Origin: Candidatus Enterococcus wittei
Lineage (GTDB): Bacteria > Bacillota > Bacilli > Lactobacillales > Enterococcaceae
Assembly: GCF_002140175.1 (NCBI RefSeq)
Contig: NZ_NGMO01000001.1
Span: 720,504-778,196 of the forward strand
Direction of reading: 5' to 3'
Length of the DNA stretch: 57,693 bases
The translations under genes were made by a program, and so were the position numbers. Positions 20,640 through 44,099 of the stretch are shown piece after piece. The notes beneath the pieces are model-generated. The model did not search any database, was not told the DNA's origin, and worked only from the letters and a program-made list of their open reading frames with translations. Each line of letters starts with the position of its first letter. Within the stretch, counting starts at the first letter, position 1.

Positions 20640-20820
20640 AAATCTATAAATATTTCTAACCAACTATAAAAGTTGTCAGATTTATGTTTATTTCCTGTTT
20701 CTACATGTCCGATTTTGCCACTTGCTCGCTACTCTCGTTTGCTTTAACACTCCGCAGGCGTTAATTCGGATACAACGAATCCTACATATCTACGTTTCTG
20801 TTTCAGTAGAAGCTCGTAGA
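20640..20820 (-). ncRNA. Putative TnpB guide (omega) RNA region and element right end
   Basis: The 180 bases after the TnpB stop hold no ORF but contain GTAGGATTCGTTGTATCCG, ATTAACGCCTGCGGAGTG and a purine-rich tail on the minus strand, resembling the conserved GCCTGCGGAG-type 3' ends of TnpB elements where the omega RNA is encoded. The exact 3' end and guide are not defined. Confidence 0.45.
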
Positions 20821-32552: not shown

Positions 32553-33688
32553 ATGTATTTAGGAGTTGATCCACTAACAGGAAAAAAGAAAGACAACTCG
32601 ACATGGTTCTAGCACTCCATTAGCCCTGTCTCTTATACACATCTAGATGTGTATAAGAGACAGGTTATAGCACTCCATTAGCCTTTGCGAGAGCTTTAAA
32701 AAGGTTAGAAAAGATATTAGAAGTTTCTATAACACAAAAGAGTAAAAAATTTGAATATATTTACAATCTCTGTTTTGAAAACTACAAAAAGACCATTAAA
32801 GACAGTATTTGATCCTCCATTAAATAAATTTTTGATACTCATATTCTGAAAATATTTAGAGCTAAATTTATTAATGAAATAGACGTTTTTTTCTGTCAAG
32901 ATGCAGTAACTACATGGTCTGATAGTCACTCTGAAATTTTCAAGAAAAGCAAAAATTACATATCTAGTGTTTTTGATTATTCTACTTCTTTACAAATCAT
33001 AACTTGCAAATCCTATGAAATTAGTTTCTGTTCCACGCGGTGAAGCTCTAATCATTGAAGATATAAAAAACGAGTTTTATATCAAAAAAGAATTAATTGA
33101 ACTTTTAGAAGTGATAAGAAATGATGAAAGATATTTATTCTTCTCTCTTTTAGCCTTTACAGGCATAAGAAAAGGAGAAGCTTTTGCTTTACAGTGATCT
33201 GATATTGATCGCTCAATATTAATAAAACTGTTACAAGAGGGTATCAAGATAGGTTAATCGTAAATAATCCTAAATCGAAGTCTGGTAAAAGAAAAAACTA
33301 TCTACACAACGTTATCATTAGTTTATTGAAAAAGGATTATTTAAAAAATAGAAATGTTGTTTTTATTCAAAATGATAATGGGATTTTCCATCATGATAGT
33401 TTGTTATATAACCCTACAATTTCACATTCTTGGATTAATATCATATGAACATCATCCAGAACCAACTAAAAGGATTACGCCTCACGGTTTTCGACATAAT
33501 CATGCCTATCTCCTTTTCGAATCAGGAGCCTTTCTAAAAGATGTTTAGGGAATGTAGTTATTCAAAACACTTCAAGTATTTACACTTATGTAAGTGAAAC
33601 TCAAAAAAAAAAAGTCATAAATGATTTTATAGCTTTTATGAAGGATAATACTCAGGGAAGTCAAAAGGAGAGTCAAAAAATATTTTAG
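32553..33688 (+). pseudogene. int: Degenerate tyrosine integrase next to tRNA-Ser
   Basis: Scattered frames spell an integrase in order: YLGVDPLTGKKK (N-terminal arm-binding box), LARALKRLEKILE, KKFEYIYNLCFENYKKTIKD, WSDSHSEIFKKSKNY, NPMKLVSVPRGEA, LLAFTGIRKGEAFALQ (first catalytic Arg), THGFRH-like PHGFRHNHAYLLFESGA, and IYTYVSETQKKK (catalytic Tyr). Multiple frameshifts and stops break it, and adapter sequence interrupts it at 32626-32663. It ends 51 bp from tRNA-Ser, as an integrase of a tRNA-targeting element would. Confidence 0.8.
32626..32663. other. Inverted Tn5/Nextera mosaic ends: probable library adapter artefact
   Basis: CTGTCTCTTATACACATCT (32626-32644) is followed at once by its reverse complement AGATGTGTATAAGAGACAG (32645-32663). 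This is identical to the Nextera mate-pair junction adapter. The flanks are a near-perfect repeat, GGTTCTAGCACTCCATTAGC at 32605 and GGTTATAGCACTCCATTAGC at 32663. It is unlikely to be native DNA, and the local sequence should be treated as unreliable. Confidence 0.93.
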
Positions 33689-33738: not shown

Positions 33739-33826
33739 AGGAAGGTACGGGACTTGAACCCGTGCACCACATTACTGCGGCTCGCCGGATTTCGAGTCCG
33801 GTGCATTACCACTCTGCCAACCTTCC
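33739..33826 (-). tRNA. tRNA-Ser (anticodon CGA)
   Basis: 88 nt. The acceptor arms GGAAGGT and ACCTTCC pair. The anticodon stem CCGGA/TCCGG encloses loop CTCGAAA, giving anticodon CGA, which reads UCG. A long class II variable arm (CCGCAGTAATGTGG) and T-loop GGGTTCAAGTCCC are present. CCA is not encoded. It serves as the apparent integration target of the remnant to its left. Confidence 0.95.
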
Positions 33827-37438: not shown

Positions 37439-39241
37439 ATGATAAATTATTTAAAACGCAGTATAGGAAATACTTGGGATTTCCTGATGGGTACGCAAGC
37501 TTACTTTCGTGATGTACTGTTAATGCACGGCTTTATTTTGTTTATCTGTCTGCCATTTTTGAACAGTACGACACGTTTTATTTTGCATCGTGGTGCCATC
37601 GATTATATTTCTACCGATAATCTCTTAACGATTATCTCTCAACACCCTGGGGTACTTTTTTCACTACTTGTCGTTTTATTGTTGATTCTGTTTTTGGTCT
37701 ATTTTGAGTTTACCTTTCTTTTGATGAGTGTTTATTTTATCAAAAAAGAAGAACCAGTCTCATTGAGACAATTACTGCAAATGACGATCCAGCAGTTGAA
37801 AAAAGTTCGACCTTTGACTTTTTTGTTTTTCTTAGCTTATTTTTTCCTGATTTTACCAATTAGTGGCTTAAGTTTTAACTCCGACTTATTATCAAAAATC
37901 AAAATTCCTGCTTTTATCATGGACTTTATTTTTACCAATCGTTGGATCATTGTTAGCTCTTTTGTTGTGTTCTATCTATTTCTTGGTTATATCGGGATCC
38001 GTTTGATTTTTGCACTTCCGGAAATGATTCTGAGAGACCGCCCTTTTCGAGAATCGGTTCGTGAAAGTTGGCGTTTAACAAAATCACGGATTTTTGCCAT
38101 TATCGGACAATTCATCATTATTGGTGGAAGTATCTTGATTCTCTCTTTTGGAGGTTATTTAGGGATTATCGCCAGTCAATCGATTGTAGAACAATTTTTC
38201 CCAGAATATTCATTAATCAGTGCGGTTTTCGCAATGACTTTATTACAAGGTGTATTATTGTTCAACATCGTGATGTCCACTGTAGGGATCTTTTATATCA
38301 TCATTGACTTTATGGATGATGAAGGCTTTTTACCTGAGATTCCAAGTTGGTATTCACCACAAAAATTGATCAAGCGACACTCAGCTTTAAAAAACACTGG
38401 TTTGATTCTATTTGCTGTCTTTTTCGGTGTTGGCGTTTGTCTATACAATATGGATTATTTGACTTCTGCCTCACAAACAAGACCTATTACTATTTCTCAT
38501 CGGGGAGTAAGTGCCAGTAATGGTGCCCAAAACACCTTAAAAGCCTTGGAGAAAACGAGTCGTGATTATCACCCTGATTATGTAGAGATGGATATCCAAG
38601 AAACAAAAGATGGTCAATTTGTCGTTATGCACGATTTCAATTTAAGAAACTTAACAGGCGTCAATAAAGCTCCACAAGATCTTACATTGAAAGAACTAGA
38701 AAAACTAAAAGTGACTGAAAATAGTGTAAAAGAGCCAGTTGTCTCCTTTGATACTTACTTGGCAAAAGCCGCAGAATTAAAGCAAAAGCTTTTAATTGAA
38801 ATCAAAACAACGAAAAAAGATTCACCGGATTTAGTTAAACGCTTTGTCGCACAATACCAAGAACAGATTTTAGAGCACGGACATATATTGCAAAGTTTGA
38901 CCTATCAAACAGTCTCTGACTTGAAACAAGAAAACCCCAATTTTTATGTAGGTTATATTTTACCCTTTAATATTGTTGGTCCACCTGTGTCCCCCGCTGA
39001 TTTTCTGACAATGGAATACAGTACCATCAATCGAAACTTTATTAACTCCGCCCACGAAGATGGCAAAAAAGTGTATGTTTGGACGCTCAATGATTCTGAC
39101 GGGATGAGTCGAATGATGTTCTATGGTGTTGATGGCATCATTACAGACGATATGAAAATTTTGAATGAAACGGTCAAAGAAACGGATGAAGAGATCACTT
39201 ACTCTGACAAATTACTTAATTTTGTATTAGGTGTTGGGTAA
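37439..39241 (+). CDS. Membrane-anchored glycerophosphodiester phosphodiesterase
   Basis: 600 aa. The N-terminal half (about residues 15-330) is a multi-helix membrane domain of the GDPD-associated type (PF10110), and a further helix lies near 320-340. The C-terminal GDPD domain starts at TISHRGVSASNGAQNTL with the catalytic pairs VEMDIQETKDG and VVMHD, and ends with VWTLNDSDGM and GVDGIITDD. It would hydrolyse glycerophosphodiesters, possibly from lipid or teichoic acid turnover, outside the cell. A TATAAT box lies at 37413-37418. Confidence 0.92.
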   Translation: MINYLKRSIGNTWDFLMGTQAYFRDVLLMHGFILFICLPFLNSTTRFILHRGAIDYISTDNLLTIISQHPGVLFSLLVVLLLILFLVYFEFTFLLMSVYFIKKEEPVSLRQLLQMTIQQLKKVRPLTFLFFLAYFFLILPISGLSFNSDLLSKIKIPAFIMDFIFTNRWIIVSSFVVFYLFLGYIGIRLIFALPEMILRDRPFRESVRESWRLTKSRIFAIIGQFIIIGGSILILSFGGYLGIIASQSIVEQFFPEYSLISAVFAMTLLQGVLLFNIVMSTVGIFYIIIDFMDDEGFLPEIPSWYSPQKLIKRHSALKNTGLILFAVFFGVGVCLYNMDYLTSASQTRPITISHRGVSASNGAQNTLKALEKTSRDYHPDYVEMDIQETKDGQFVVMHDFNLRNLTGVNKAPQDLTLKELEKLKVTENSVKEPVVSFDTYLAKAAELKQKLLIEIKTTKKDSPDLVKRFVAQYQEQILEHGHILQSLTYQTVSDLKQENPNFYVGYILPFNIVGPPVSPADFLTMEYSTINRNFINSAHEDGKKVYVWTLNDSDGMSRMMFYGVDGIITDDMKILNETVKETDEEITYSDKLLNFVLGVG

Positions 39242-39817: not shown

Positions 39818-39967
39818 ATGACATTTACAAAAACAAATATGGATTATCGTGTTGCATTTAATACTGCGACAAATCGTTTTATTGCAATTGATGCAAGTAA
39901 CGAAGAACACGTGGCATTTGGTATCACCATTGAACAAGCTATCAAAGCATTGCATGAATCTAACTAA
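39818..39967 (+). CDS. Small hypothetical protein
   Basis: 49 aa (MTFTKTNMDYRVAFNTATN ... IEQAIKALHESN), soluble, probably a small beta-alpha fold. AAAGGAG precedes the ATG at 8 nt, and a strong terminator follows at 40012-40058. I do not recognise the family, but the signals and amino-acid composition look like a real gene. Confidence 0.7.
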   Translation: MTFTKTNMDYRVAFNTATNRFIAIDASNEEHVAFGITIEQAIKALHESN

Positions 39968-40121: not shown

Positions 40122-40511
40122 TTATTTTTTGCATTTCCCTTGTTCTTCCGAGTAATCTGTTAATCTTTTTAAGCGATTCTTGATAAATTCAGGAACAGGA
40201 ACACCCAACTTTCTTAAATTTTCAATAACTGACAATCCATAAATGCCACAATAAGAAAAAACTAGAGCTATCCCCATTACCTCAAATCCTGTGATTTTCA
40301 AATACGGATAAGCAACTAAAACCAGTGTGATTACCAATAAATACTTCACAGTTTCTTTCCAAATCCTTTTTTTGTCCATTTTCTTTTTTCCTAGATATCG
40401 ACAAAATCCCGTAATAAAATCAGCCACAAGAATAAGCATAAATACATGGATATACACATTATTGATTAAGTTTTTAAACTCGGTGAATAACATAAGATTA
40501 TCAATAATCAT
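40122..40511 (-). CDS. Phage holin family protein (TcdE/PF05105 type)
   Basis: 129 aa with three hydrophobic helices (about 20-40, 53-72, 76-98) and a basic tail. The first helix carries ADFITGF, the D-x-x-T-G pattern of the holin_4_1 (TcdE/UtxA) family. GAGGGAGAG precedes the ATG. In phages such holins permeabilise the membrane to release endolysin, and relatives release toxins or bacteriocins. No endolysin lies nearby. A promoter with an operator (40773-40801) points at it from about 255 bp upstream. Confidence 0.85.
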   Translation of the reverse strand: MIIDNLMLFTEFKNLINNVYIHVFMLILVADFITGFCRYLGKKKMDKKRIWKETVKYLLVITLVLVAYPYLKITGFEVMGIALVFSYCGIYGLSVIENLRKLGVPVPEFIKNRLKRLTDYSEEQGKCKK

Positions 40512-40638
40512 CTGCTCTCCCTCTACTTTCTCTTCTATATTGATTGAATTTAAAAAAATAAAAGACTCATCTCCCTTTTGATTTTTATTTGAAAAACATA
40601 TACATAAAATCGCAAAAAAGCGAAAGACAGCGTATTCT

Positions 40639-40801
40639 TTGACACAAGATAGCTTTTAAGCTATTATGTTTACAGAACGAATAAGAAAAATATGAATGGA
40701 CGAACCATCGATTTTTCTTAATCTATCGCTGATTTATTTGCTTAACTGCTATTTAAAATAGTTGATGAATAAACTATAATAGCTTAAAAGCTATTTGTCA
40801 A
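40639..40801. promoter_or_regulatory. Face-to-face promoters with shared palindromic operators
   Basis: Plus strand: TTGACA (40639-40644), 17-bp spacer, TATTAT (40662-40667), pointing to the XRE gene. Minus strand: TTGACA (40796-40801), 17-bp spacer, TATAGT (40773-40778), pointing to the holin. Both spacers carry ATAGCTTTTAAGCTAT (40649-40664; minus strand of 40779-40794). A weaker palindrome CTATTTAAAATAG lies between (40749-40761), and a second plus promoter TTTAAA-17-TATAAT sits at 40752-40780. This is the layout of a repressor-controlled switch. Confidence 0.75.
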
Positions 40802-40856
40802 TAATAATGACTTTTATGCTATTTATTCTTTTTCGTTTCTTAGGAAGGTGGTATTT

Positions 40857-41219
40857 ATGACATTAGTCACACGTATCAGAGAACTAGCAGATGAAAAAAA
40901 AGTAACATTTGCTGAAATCGAACGAGCCATAGGCATTTCCAATGGACAGATCAGAAGATGGGACAAGGTTTCCCCTAAATCTGAAAATCTAAAAAAAGTG
41001 GCAGATTATTTCGGTGTATCTACCGACTATCTGCTAGGTAGCAATCAAGTACCAAAATGGGCAAACAACGAGGATTTAGTAGAATTGGATAAGATGCTGA
41101 ATTCAAATGTCAACATGGCTTATGGTGGAGAAATGTTGACAGATGAGGAGAAACAACGTGTCAAAGATGTCTTGACCGGCCTTTTCTGGGAATTCAGAAA
41201 ACGAGACAAAGAGATGTGA
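40857..41219 (+). CDS. XRE-family HTH transcriptional repressor
   Basis: 120 aa. The phage-repressor HTH covers about residues 5-60 (TFAEIERAIGISNGQIRRW, YFGVSTDYLLG). The acidic C-terminal part has no peptidase motif, so it is not a self-cleaving repressor. The next gene encodes an ImmA-like protease, as in ImmR/ImmA pairs. The ATG at 40857 follows GGAAGGTGG; a GTG at 40848 is rejected. The palindromes upstream are its probable operators. Confidence 0.9.
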   Translation: MTLVTRIRELADEKKVTFAEIERAIGISNGQIRRWDKVSPKSENLKKVADYFGVSTDYLLGSNQVPKWANNEDLVELDKMLNSNVNMAYGGEMLTDEEKQRVKDVLTGLFWEFRKRDKEM

Positions 41220-41225
41220 TTTCAT

Positions 41226-41654
41226 ATGGAGATAGATGTGATCAAACTAGTCAGTACCCTCAAACGAACCTACCAAACGGCTAATCCGTTTTTGATTTCC
41301 GAAAAGATGGGAATTGAAATTAGATACGTTTCATTTCTTGAAAATCCTAAAGGACAATTTCAAGAACTAATGGGTTATCCGATCATTCTTTTGAACGAGT
41401 CATTAAAAGAATCTGAAGAACGATTTTACATCTGCGCACACGAACTTGGGCATGCCCTATTTCATCATGGATTATCAAGCTACTATGTGTCTACAAGAAA
41501 GTCACGTAGTAAATCAGAAAGCGAAGCGAACTGCTTTGCTGCGAATCTGATCGTTTCTCTATATAAAGAAGATAACGAGCAGTATCCTAGAAAAATCGAG
41601 GAATTAACAAATTTATACGGACTTCCAGAAAGTTCCTATAGATTTTTAATTTAA
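41226..41654 (+). CDS. ImmA/IrrE-family metallo-endopeptidase
   Basis: 142 aa. The zinc motif HELGH (in CAHELGHALFHHG near residue 75) and a downstream Glu in SESEANCFAANLIV define the family. In ICEBs1 and related phages the protease cleaves the adjacent repressor after DNA damage or a signal. It starts 6 bp after the XRE stop. By analogy it would inactivate that repressor and release both controlled promoters. Confidence 0.9.
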   Translation: MEIDVIKLVSTLKRTYQTANPFLISEKMGIEIRYVSFLENPKGQFQELMGYPIILLNESLKESEERFYICAHELGHALFHHGLSSYYVSTRKSRSKSESEANCFAANLIVSLYKEDNEQYPRKIEELTNLYGLPESSYRFLI

Positions 41655-41684
41655 TTTATTGATCTAAATCAACAAGGAGGAATT

Positions 41685-42479
41685 ATGAGTATTTTTTTAA
41701 CATTAATTGGGTTCTTTGGATTTCTATTTGGGATAGGTTTTTTAGTTTATTCTTTTTTTTCAAAAAAGAAACGATCAAAGAAAAAGATTAGCATCGGAAT
41801 TTTAGCAACATTTGTAATTATGGTGATTGGTATCGCTCTTGCTCCACCAGTTACTGAGCAAGCAGAGACAAGTATTACCAAGTCCACCACTAGTTCAACT
41901 GTCTTGGATACCTCTTCTGAAAGTCGAGAAAAAGACAAAGCTGAAAAAGCCCTAAAAAAAGAACAAAAAGCTAGAGAAGAAACTGAAAAAAAATTACAAG
42001 AAGAACAGAAAACTAGAGAAGAAGCTGAAAAAAAATTACAAGAAATTAATCAAAAAACTTCAACAGCTGAAACACTTTTAGTCCAAGCAGAGACAAATCC
42101 AACAAGGGATAACTATAACTCTGCATTATCAGCTATTCAATCTATCCCTGGTGGAAATCCAAATTTATCTGCTCGATTAGCTAATGTTGATTCCACTATC
42201 AAAGCAACTGAGGCAGCTCAGATAGCTGAGCAACAAAGACAGCAAGAAATTGCTCAGGAACAAGCAAGACAAGTCGCAGCTCAAGCTGAACAGCAAAGAC
42301 AAGCTCAAGAACAAGCAAATCAGGCTGCGCAACAACAAAATACCCAACAGACAATATTAGTTACAAGAACTGGTGCTAAATATCATGTTAGAAAATGTGG
42401 AAATGGCACTTATACACCAGCAACTTTAGAAGAAGCACAATCTAGAGGGTTGACGCCTTGCGAAAAATGTTTCAACTAA
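41685..42479 (+). CDS. Membrane protein with coiled coil and C-terminal Cys/His metal-binding motif
   Basis: 264 aa. Two N-terminal helices (about 3-24, 34-52) are followed by a Ser/Thr-rich stretch and long charged coiled coils (repeats of EKKLQEEQKTREEAE type, about 85-130) and a Gln/Ala-rich segment (180-225). The end, YHVRKCGNG...GLTPCEKC, matches a small YHxxxC...CxxC domain seen in phage and surface proteins. It shares an operon with xre-immA (31-bp gap). Function unknown. Confidence 0.8.
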   Translation: MSIFLTLIGFFGFLFGIGFLVYSFFSKKKRSKKKISIGILATFVIMVIGIALAPPVTEQAETSITKSTTSSTVLDTSSESREKDKAEKALKKEQKAREETEKKLQEEQKTREEAEKKLQEINQKTSTAETLLVQAETNPTRDNYNSALSAIQSIPGGNPNLSARLANVDSTIKATEAAQIAEQQRQQEIAQEQARQVAAQAEQQRQAQEQANQAAQQQNTQQTILVTRTGAKYHVRKCGNGTYTPATLEEAQSRGLTPCEKCFN

Positions 42480-42752: not shown

Positions 42753-44099
42753 TTAAAGGCGTTCGTTCAATTCTTTCGCAAGGTCTTCAAAGCCTGGTTT
42801 GCCTAGAAGTGCGAACATGTTTTTCTTATAAGCTTCTACACCTGGTTGGTCAAATGGATTGATCCCATTCAAGTAACCTGAGATGCCGACAGCAATTTCA
42901 AAGAAGTACATAGTATAACCTAGAGTGTAAGCATCCATTTCAGGGATTTTTACCAATAAGTTCGGTACATCTCCATCTGTGTGGGCAAGTAATGTTCCTT
43001 CGAAAGCTTTTGTGTTAACAAAGTCGATTTCTTTGCCTTGTAAATAACCTAGTCCATCTAAGTCCTGTTCTTGTTCAGGAATCGTAATTGATTTACGTGG
43101 TTTTTCCACTTTAACGACTGTTTCAAAAATGTTGCGGCGACCTTCTTGAATGTATTGACCTAGTGAGTGCAAGTCAGTAGAGAAGTTTGCACTTGAAGGA
43201 TAGATTCCTTTTTGGTCTTTTCCTTCTGATTCACCGTACAATTGTTTCCACCATTCATTGAAATATTGCATGCCTGGTTCATAATTGATCAATAGCTCAG
43301 TCACTTTTCCTTTACGGTAAAGGATATTACGCATTGCAGCATATTGATAAGCTTCGTTTTCTTCTAATTTGTCACTTGAGTATGCTTTACTTGCATCAGC
43401 AGCACCTTGCATCAAAGCATCGATATCTGCTCCGCTAACTGCGATTGGCAATAAACCAACAGCTGTCAATACAGAGAAACGTCCGCCGACATCATCAGGA
43501 ATAACAAATGTTTCCCATCCTTCTGCATCTGCTTCTACTTTAACCGCACCTTTTGCTTTGTCTGTTGTTGCATAGATACGTTTATTTGCTTCTTCTTGTC
43601 CATATTTCTTAACAAGTAATTCTTTGAATACACGGAATGCGATGGCTGGCTCAGTGGTTGTACCTGATTTTGAGATAACATTTACTGAGAAGTCACGGTC
43701 ACCGATAACTTCGATCAAGTCAGCTAGATAAGTTGAGCTGATCGAGTTTCCAGCAAAGAAGATTTGTGGTGCTTTACGTTCATCGTTTTCTAAAACATTA
43801 TAGAATGTATGTTGTAAGAATTCGATTGCCGCACGAGCGCCAAGGTAAGATCCTCCGATACCGATTACGACAAGTACTTCGGAATCAGATTGGATTTTTT
43901 TAGCAGCTTCCTTGATACGGGCAAATTCTTCTTTGTCATAATTCGTTGGTAGGTCGATCCAGCCACGGAAATCACTACCTGCACCTGTACCTTCACGTAA
44001 TAATTTATCAGCAGTAGTTACTTGGCTTTGCATATAGCCTAACTCATGTTCATTGACAAATGGTGCAACTTTTGAATAGTCAAAATGAATGTGTGCCAT
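42753..44099 (-). CDS. pgi: Glucose-6-phosphate isomerase
   Basis: 448 aa, the usual Firmicutes length. It interconverts glucose-6-phosphate and fructose-6-phosphate. Landmarks are [34 protein letters not shown] (phosphate binding), [19 protein letters not shown] and [17 protein letters not shown] precedes the ATG. It is probably transcribed alone. Confidence 0.97.

What the first reader, a model, noticed from the sequence alone, without database searches (positions are those of the whole stretch)
40122..42479. Stand-alone holin switch: TcdE-like holin, XRE repressor, ImmA protease and a coiled-coil membrane protein
The sequence shows a holin gene facing left and an xre-immA-membrane protein operon facing right. 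Promoters for each (TTGACA-17-TATAGT and TTGACA-17-TATTAT) point toward one another across about 160 bp. Both spacers contain the same 16-bp palindrome ATAGCTTTTAAGCTAT, extended by TTAT on the same side. Known ImmR/ImmA systems work by proteolysis of the repressor. It follows, as inference, that damage or a signal could activate ImmA, clear XRE and turn on the holin, giving regulated membrane permeabilisation, lysis or protein release without phage structural genes. The overlapping transcripts could also act as antisense RNAs. A decayed prophage is the alternative.
Basis: partly seen in the sequence, partly recalled or inferred. Interest (0 to 1): 0.78.

Follow-up and report, generated by a model that had tools for sequence, protein, structure and literature searches.

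The report
Phage holin switch kept by enterococci
Some enterococci appear to have kept, from long-dead viruses, little more than the on-off switch and the membrane-hole gene, and natural selection has preserved both, so the pair probably does something for the bacterium that remains to be tested.

Summary
The layout is real: a PF05105/TIGR01593 holin (-) and xre-immA (+) driven by two face-to-face promoters, each carrying the same 7-2-7 inverted repeat. It is a phage lysis/lysogeny switch. The resident prophage and 24 viral loci (near-copies of one type) have the same operators beside a 72-75% identical XRE, and in two other species partly or wholly preserved elements at this very site (pgi 3' end) carry xre-immA in the same place and orientation, with an integrase. 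Here the leftward promoter faces only a holin. The holin|xre-immA block lies between GDPD and pgi in 4 of 15 genus genomes (this one and three of the E. mundtii complex, one clade), with both promoter-operators conserved and the holin under purifying selection. In another genus a second locus, xre-immA one way and arpU-holin the other, with the same kind of operators, is kept in 16 of 22 species (holin dN/dS about 0.04); 2 of these 16 still have an endolysin there. So phage switch-plus-holin units were apparently domesticated at least twice. The coiled-coil gene is variable cargo. What the holin does for the host (suicide, release, defence) is inferred, not shown. Nearest precedents: Listeria monocin/MpaR, E. 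coli DLP12 lysis module.

The parts
40122..40511 (-). Holin, 129 aa, Phage_holin_4_1 / toxin-secretion holin subfamily, with several hydrophobic stretches
40639..40667 (+). Rightward (lysogenic-type) promoter TTGACA-17-TATTAT for xre-immA
40649..40664 (+). Operator 1, ATAGCTTTTAAGCTAT, in the spacer and first 3 bases of the -10
40773..40801 (-). Leftward (lytic-type) promoter TTGACA-17-TATAGT facing the holin
40779..40794 (-). Operator 2, identical to operator 1, wholly in the spacer
40807..40822 (+). Weaker third operator-like site (3 mismatches), at the place of the third site of related phages
   Evidence: read; compare
40857..41219 (+). XRE repressor, 120 aa
41226..41654 (+). ImmA/IrrE metallopeptidase, 142 aa, HELGH motif
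41685..42479 (+). Coiled-coil membrane protein with C-terminal Cys/His motif: lineage-specific cargo; could be co-transcribed, not part of the conserved switch

Best explanation
The block is a domesticated remnant of a prophage that once sat at the 3' end of pgi: the phage's lysis/lysogeny switch (face-to-face promoters, XRE repressor, ImmA peptidase) with the leftward lytic promoter now feeding only a holin. Shown by sequence: the parts, operators shared with phages, orthology at one locus, purifying selection, and relatives of the switch in integrated elements at the same site. Inferred: XRE binds the operators and shuts the holin promoter; a stress signal (single-stranded DNA or similar) activates ImmA, XRE is cleaved, and the holin is made and permeabilises the membrane, ending in death, lysis or release of cell contents in some cells, to the benefit of the population (release of proteins or DNA, or abortive infection).
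For: Same block at the same locus in 4 of 15 genus genomes, each with GDPD and orf49 on the left and pgi on the right; the four form a clade in the GDPD tree (93/92), and the three XREs put in a tree form one (94/86). Two of them are E. mundtii N55263 and Pe161. Identity to the window: holin 63-64%, XRE 84-85% (two genomes), ImmA 84%, GDPD 81-82%, pgi 96-97%. Holin dN 0.27-0.28 against dS 2.2, 2.9 or not measurable; within the E. mundtii complex dN/dS 0.22-0.26. A holin without selection stays open in 1 of 4000 simulations at 0.6 substitutions per site. Both promoter-operators stand out as conserved among diverged bases. Phage origin: the resident prophage has the same facing operators, as have 24 of 38 viral loci examined; in G005 and G006 an integrase, immA (78-81% identical) and xre lie next to pgi in the orientation seen here, and pgi-end copies lie 26 kb off (G005) or on another contig (G006). 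Parallel in another genus: 17 of 22 genomes with the XRE at one locus, 16 with the holin, holin dN/dS median 0.036. A -35-plus-operator pattern over 395 genomes of 80 genera hit 13 places: 4 pgi blocks, 8 of the second locus, 1 resident prophage (reversed control pattern: 1 hit in each of 2 other genomes).
Against: No expression, binding or toxicity data. No endolysin beside the holin here, so plain lysis is not assured; at the second locus 3 of 17 genomes still have one, so 'holin alone' is not the only kept form. In 1 of the 4 genomes (G012, E. mundtii Pe161) the end of XRE is altered by a frameshift. The holin diverges faster (63-64%) than XRE and ImmA. dS is saturated between the window and E. 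mundtii, so that omega is rough. XRE and ImmA have hardly a solved relative by sequence (ImmA none at E 0.01, XRE one at 2e-6), so cleavage is by analogy. The GDPD clade is below the strict support mark. The 24 viral loci are near-copies, not independent.
Confidence: 0.72

Rival explanations
1. Neutral prophage debris: xre-immA and holin are leftovers in slow decay, with no benefit to the host.
For: Elements and integrase pieces at pgi in other species; G012 XRE end shifted; single genomes G011 and G003 hold similar switch-lysis remnants at hup and rplL that look like plain deletions of prophages.
Against: Open frames after saturated synonymous divergence, operators conserved on both promoters, and a second locus kept in 16 of 22 species with holin omega 0.036.
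Confidence: 0.13
2. Immunity gene: the retained XRE protects against related phages that share its operators; the holin is kept only as a passenger.
For: Operators nearly identical to those of the resident prophage and 24 viral loci; XRE 72-75% identical to theirs.
Against: Does not explain purifying selection on the holin or conservation of its promoter; a prophage with nearly the same operators lives in the same genome.
Confidence: 0.1
3. Transport or vesicle function without killing: low holin expression permits protein release, as proposed for holin-dependent secretion.
For: The holin scores above cut-off to TIGR01593, toxin secretion/phage lysis holin; G007 has an NlpC/P60 protein downstream of immA.
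Against: No conserved secreted cargo beside the block: it differs between the four genomes. Repressor control suggests a harmful product.
Confidence: 0.05

Closest known systems
Listeria monocin / MpaR system (PMC6872733, passages read)
   Same: Domesticated phage element; CI-like repressor and DUF955 metalloprotease pair; deletion of the repressor lethally activates monocin and lysis genes; the protease also cleaves a resident prophage's repressor
   Different: A larger element (monocin) than switch plus holin; the repressor pair here is tied to a holin only
Listeria cI-cro/mtz-tim locus (PMC8235301, passages read)
   Same: Conserved phage-derived XRE switch acting on sensitivity to lysis
   Different: Controls a metzincin and TIMP-like pair and lacks an ImmA; here a holin with ImmA
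E. coli DLP12 lysis module (PMC7918800, abstract read)
   Same: Lysis genes of a defective prophage domesticated by the host, affecting vesicles
   Different: Holin-endolysin-spanin operon; no XRE/ImmA switch described in the abstract
Other co-opted lysis cassettes (review PMC8987985, passages read): biofilm lysis in P. aeruginosa, vesicles and spores in B. subtilis
   Same: Phage lysis genes serving the host population
   Different: Not described there with an XRE/ImmA-holin unit
ImmR/ImmA of ICEBs1 and CapH/CapP of CBASS
   Same: XRE repressor plus M78 peptidase; capH is the top PADLOC hit of XRE, capP the second of ImmA; ssDNA activates CapH cleavage by CapP (PMC10904395, passage read)
   Different: Control a conjugative element (recalled) or a defence operon, not a holin
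Phage 186 / P2 switch (PMC7498355, passages read)
   Same: Lytic and lysogenic promoters face to face
   Different: A Gram-negative phage; different repressor and operators (recalled)

Membership tests
Phage_holin_4_1 / TcdE-like holin | Profile match above curated cut-off | tested here: met
   PF05105 64.7 bits (cut-off 22.2), TIGR01593 53.2 (cut-off 40.2)
Phage_holin_4_1 / TcdE-like holin | Forms membrane lesions | not testable with these tools
   Only hydrophobic stretches computed
ImmR/ImmA regulatory pair | XRE repressor gene directly followed by an M78 peptidase with HExxH | tested here: met
ImmR/ImmA regulatory pair | Peptidase cleaves the repressor on a signal | not testable with these tools
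   By analogy only
CBASS CapH/CapP | Next to a CD-NTase/cap operon | tested here: not met
   Holin: no PADLOC match; coiled-coil protein: only weak JetC and DndD matches; flanks are GDPD and pgi (by sequence)
Intact prophage | Integrase, replication, packaging and structural genes near by | tested here: not met
   None among the frames between GDPD and pgi in the window. E. mundtii-complex cargo: the 7 proteins scanned gave NlpC/P60, deaminase, acetyltransferase, type I restriction N-terminus or nothing; the remaining frames were only read by eye
Domesticated prophage element | Orthologous locus in several species, vertical descent, purifying selection | tested here: met
   second locus
Holin-lysin (type 10) secretion system (features recalled) | Holin with a cognate endolysin and secreted cargo | tested here: not met
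   No endolysin among the frames beside the holin in the window; cargo variable

The most novel reading that the evidence does not exclude
A recurrent host defence: bacteria keep a phage-type operator switch wired to a holin so that a replicating phage of the same immunity type, by titrating XRE with its many operator copies or by raising ssDNA that activates ImmA, sets off premature membrane permeabilisation and aborts its own burst. The unit would have arisen at least twice in Enterococcaceae and be widespread in one genus.
Probability: 0.2. Interest if true: 0.85.

Novelty: new variant of a known kind. Interest (0 to 1): 0.66.

Why it matters
It offers two separately placed, apparently vertically inherited loci in which a prophage was stripped to its decision switch and its holin (plus an ArpU-like activator at one). 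One can then ask directly what a holin under XRE/ImmA control does for a bacterium: programmed death, release, or phage defence. The operators shared with phages predict cross-talk that can be tested. In nine paper searches I saw no such unit described, in the listings and the passages I opened. One paper lists a 390-base holin gene as unique to E. mundtii CRL1656 among nine enterococcal species, with no genomic island named for it (PMC4076982, Table 2): the same length as this gene and probably the same, not checked.

Tried and rejected
Four-gene operon as the unit: rejected. immA is followed by different genes in each of the four genomes; relatives of the coiled-coil gene lie in the stretch beside GDPD in G010, G014, G005, G009 and G003, without holin or switch in that stretch (in G009 and G014 the contig ends before pgi).

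Viral contigs by the four-holin alignment: no relative. Phages by holin protein: 92 records, all below 60% identity, best 53.5%, so no recent donor of the holin was seen. Plasmids and phages by DNA: only parts matched. Genome contigs by holin alignment: 3 loci, all E. mundtii; two are the block, one lies among tail-type genes.

Solved structures: nothing useful. No structure prediction was run.

Naming the second genus (g9): a flagellin search (0 of 26 genomes) speaks against the motile enterococci; no name was obtained. Five of its 22 genomes lack the locus; four of these have the neighbouring gene with another upstream neighbour, one (G110) has no close copy of it.

Whether the pgi and g9 XREs go back to one domestication: the tree leaves it open (16 of 38 inner branches open); different sites, different holins and the presence of arpU favour two. 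Some rows of that tree (such as L010-L022) have another DNA-binding domain and serve as outgroup only; G012 and 8 of the 17 g9 XREs were not put in.

The text is mended accordingly.

Full report
What is there. Between a membrane GDPD gene (37439-39241) and pgi (42753-44099, named from its sequence) the window holds a holin on the minus strand and xre, immA and a coiled-coil membrane protein on the plus strand. Two sigma-70-like promoters stand face to face, 40639-40667 (+) and 40801-40773 (-). Each carries ATAGCTTTTAAGCTAT, a 7-2-7 inverted repeat, read in the same sense relative to its own promoter, far beyond chance (0.05 expected, 0 of 100 shuffles as high). The start sites would lie some 90 bp apart and face each other, so that each transcript would cross the other promoter (inference from the promoter positions).

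It is a phage switch. The window's genome (G000:C1) has at 860 kb a prophage with xre-immA (72% identical DNA; XRE 72%, ImmA 79% identical protein) and the same two facing operators with 1 and 2 mismatches to the 19-mer, with phage-like genes on the left (by eye). Of 80 viral loci encoding a relative of XRE I examined 38 for operators: 24 (L091-L114, XRE 74-75%, nearly all alike and so not independent) have them at -237, -80 and -49 from xre, except that one lacks the middle site and one has a mismatch in the first and an extra weak site; the other 14 have fewer or none. Two Listeria phages carry an XRE 74% identical. The window has a weak third site at the matching place, 40807-40822.

The block is fixed at one place. 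By DNA, 14 of 15 genomes of the genus have some match to the 2.4-kb query, mostly parts of xre-immA or of the coiled-coil gene at other places, whose context I did not study. The holin|xre-immA block itself lies between GDPD/orf49 and pgi in four: G000, G007, G008, G012. In the other 11 no holin, xre or immA was found in the stretch fetched beside GDPD; in G002, G009, G011 and G014 the contig ends before pgi, and in G005 and G006 the stretch ended inside an inserted element. In G001 and G013 orf49 and pgi are under 200 bp apart, as an empty site would be. The four genomes form a clade in the GDPD tree (93/92).

Site of entry and likely ancestor. In G005 the whole pgi lies at C2:1900171-1901529 and a second copy of its last 85 bases at C2:1928048-1928132, about 26 kb off, between pgi and GDPD. 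The DNA between them holds, from pgi outwards, a tyrosine integrase, immA (81% identical to the window's), xre (61%, with another DNA-binding part), and at the far end tail-type frames, a PF16079 holin and an Amidase_2 endolysin. In G006 the order xre, immA (78%), a phage-type frame, integrase, pgi is seen on one contig, and a 91-base pgi-end copy lies on the contig of GDPD. In both, xre-immA point as in the window. Shorter traces: a 45-base pgi-end match in G010, and integrase C-terminal pieces in G004 and G009 (PF00589 E 0.0008, under the cut-off; a frame in G012 that I had thought another piece has no match). G004 has a pgi-end copy about 70 kb away, unexplained. No left-hand copy was found in the window. 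So the block most simply comes from a pgi prophage that lost the stretch from the lytic promoter to the holin, the endolysin and the integrase (inference).

Selection. Against the E. mundtii complex the holin has dN 0.27-0.28 with dS 2.2, 2.9 or not measurable; xre and immA dN 0.08-0.12. Within the complex the holin dN/dS is 0.22-0.26. In simulations without selection the holin frame stays open in 13 of 4000 runs at 0.3 substitutions per site, 1 of 4000 at 0.6, 0 of 4000 at 1.0. In the intergenic alignment the two promoter-operator stretches and the third site stand out; E. mundtii-complex operators differ from the window's by at most one base each. Against: G012 has a frameshift near the end of xre.

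A second, wider instance. A search of 105 family genomes for the 19-mer with 2 mismatches hit 28 genomes (51 places); the reversed control pattern hit 21 genomes (25 places), so the bare count says little. What counts is the place: 17 of the 28 belong to one other genus (g9), and there the sites lie between immA-xre on one strand and an ArpU-like activator (phrog_248) followed by a PF05105 holin on the other (11 loci read, of which two were chance matches in other genera; 17 neighbourhoods; families). In the 17 fetched neighbourhoods (16 of 20 kb, one of 14 kb) the switch lies among the same chromosomal genes, with exceptions: in G098 none of the five left-hand reference genes is within reach, and a second holin-endolysin pair lies about 10 kb away; in G115 and G109 the right-hand MFS gene is missing; several have inserts next to immA or the holin. 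In the genus, 17 of 22 genomes have the XRE at 75% identity or more and 16 the holin at the locus. The 17th, G109, has there another PF05105 holin followed by an Amidase_5 endolysin. An Amidase_5 endolysin also follows the holin in G105 and, after other frames, in G114. By tblastn with these three endolysins, the remaining 13 neighbourhoods other than G098's have no relative. So the ancestor probably had arpU-holin-endolysin, and most lineages kept the holin only. Further holin copies in five genomes (G098, G112, G114, G115, G118) lie beside tail- or lysin-like genes (by eye). The facing promoters and their repeats can be followed in the 17 genomes, loosely in G109. Median dN/dS against G104: holin 0.036 (15 of 15 pairs), xre 0.060 (16 of 16), immA 0.032 (14 of 16 measurable), arpU 0.043 (9 of 16 measurable), three flanking genes 0.012-0.069. 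The holin there is about as constrained as its housekeeping neighbours.

How specific is the pattern? A -35 box plus operator, searched in 395 genomes of 80 genera of the order, matched exactly at 13 places in 12 genomes: the four pgi blocks, eight g9 loci and the resident prophage; the reversed pattern matched once in each of 2 genomes. It missed the other g9 loci, which differ by a base or more.

Other remnants. In G011 immA-xre and arpU-holin-amidase diverge at hup; in G003 a phage-lysozyme-domain gene and holin diverge from xre-immA at rplL; among the frames of 90 aa or more in the 20 and 16 kb fetched I saw no phage structural gene by eye. The right-hand neighbour of the G011 locus also stands beside a holin-amidase module with tail-type genes in G013 (by eye), which suggests a prophage stripped of its middle. 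Such single cases may be neutral debris; the pgi and g9 loci are not easily so.

Mechanism. XRE shutting both promoters, ImmA cleaving XRE on a signal, and the holin opening the membrane follow from ImmR/ImmA (recalled), MpaR and CapH/CapP (PMC6872733 and PMC10904395, passages read) and are not shown here. PADLOC places XRE nearest to CapH, and ImmA nearest to RmrA-type proteins and CapP. What is gained is open. A population-level benefit by death or release is my first choice; phage defence through shared operators is the boldest reading that the data allow.

Family membership. It is a holin of a known family under a known type of switch; the arrangement as a selected unit is what is new. It is not a CBASS, not an intact prophage, and not a holin-lysin secretion system as defined.

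Noticed in passing
window 20692-20758 (-): RAGATH-18 RNA (67.1 bits, gathering score 44.9).
   Followed up: no
window 33015-33548 (+), beside tRNA-Ser 33739-33826 (-): Two short frames that look by eye like pieces of a tyrosine recombinase next to the tRNA; similar pieces near the same genes in G007 (L045). Perhaps a second integration scar.
   Followed up: no
L055 4892-7492 (G003): Phage-lysozyme-domain gene and holin diverging from xre-immA beside rplL.
   Followed up: partly
L048 8115-11202 (G011): immA-xre diverging from arpU-holin-amidase at hup: a lysis-only prophage remnant.
   Followed up: partly
L240 8912-12287 (G109): The g9 locus with a different PF05105 holin and an Amidase_5 endolysin: either the fuller ancestral cassette or an exchange.
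   Followed up: partly
L315 and L316 (G005:C2 1901400-1929399): Partly decayed element between pgi and its repeated 3' end: integrase, a 545-aa frame that looks by eye like a SIR2-type defence protein, immA, xre, an ArpU-like frame, tail-type frames, holin, amidase.
   Followed up: partly
G005 and G006 XRE (L315 4862-5242, L317 981-1364): ImmA is 78-81% identical to the window's, but XRE only 59-61%, with a different N-terminal DNA-binding part: immunity specificity seems to be swapped while the ImmA partner stays.
   Followed up: no
window 39818-39967 (+): Conserved 49-aa frame between GDPD and the block, seen in 13 of 15 genomes; function unknown.
   Followed up: no
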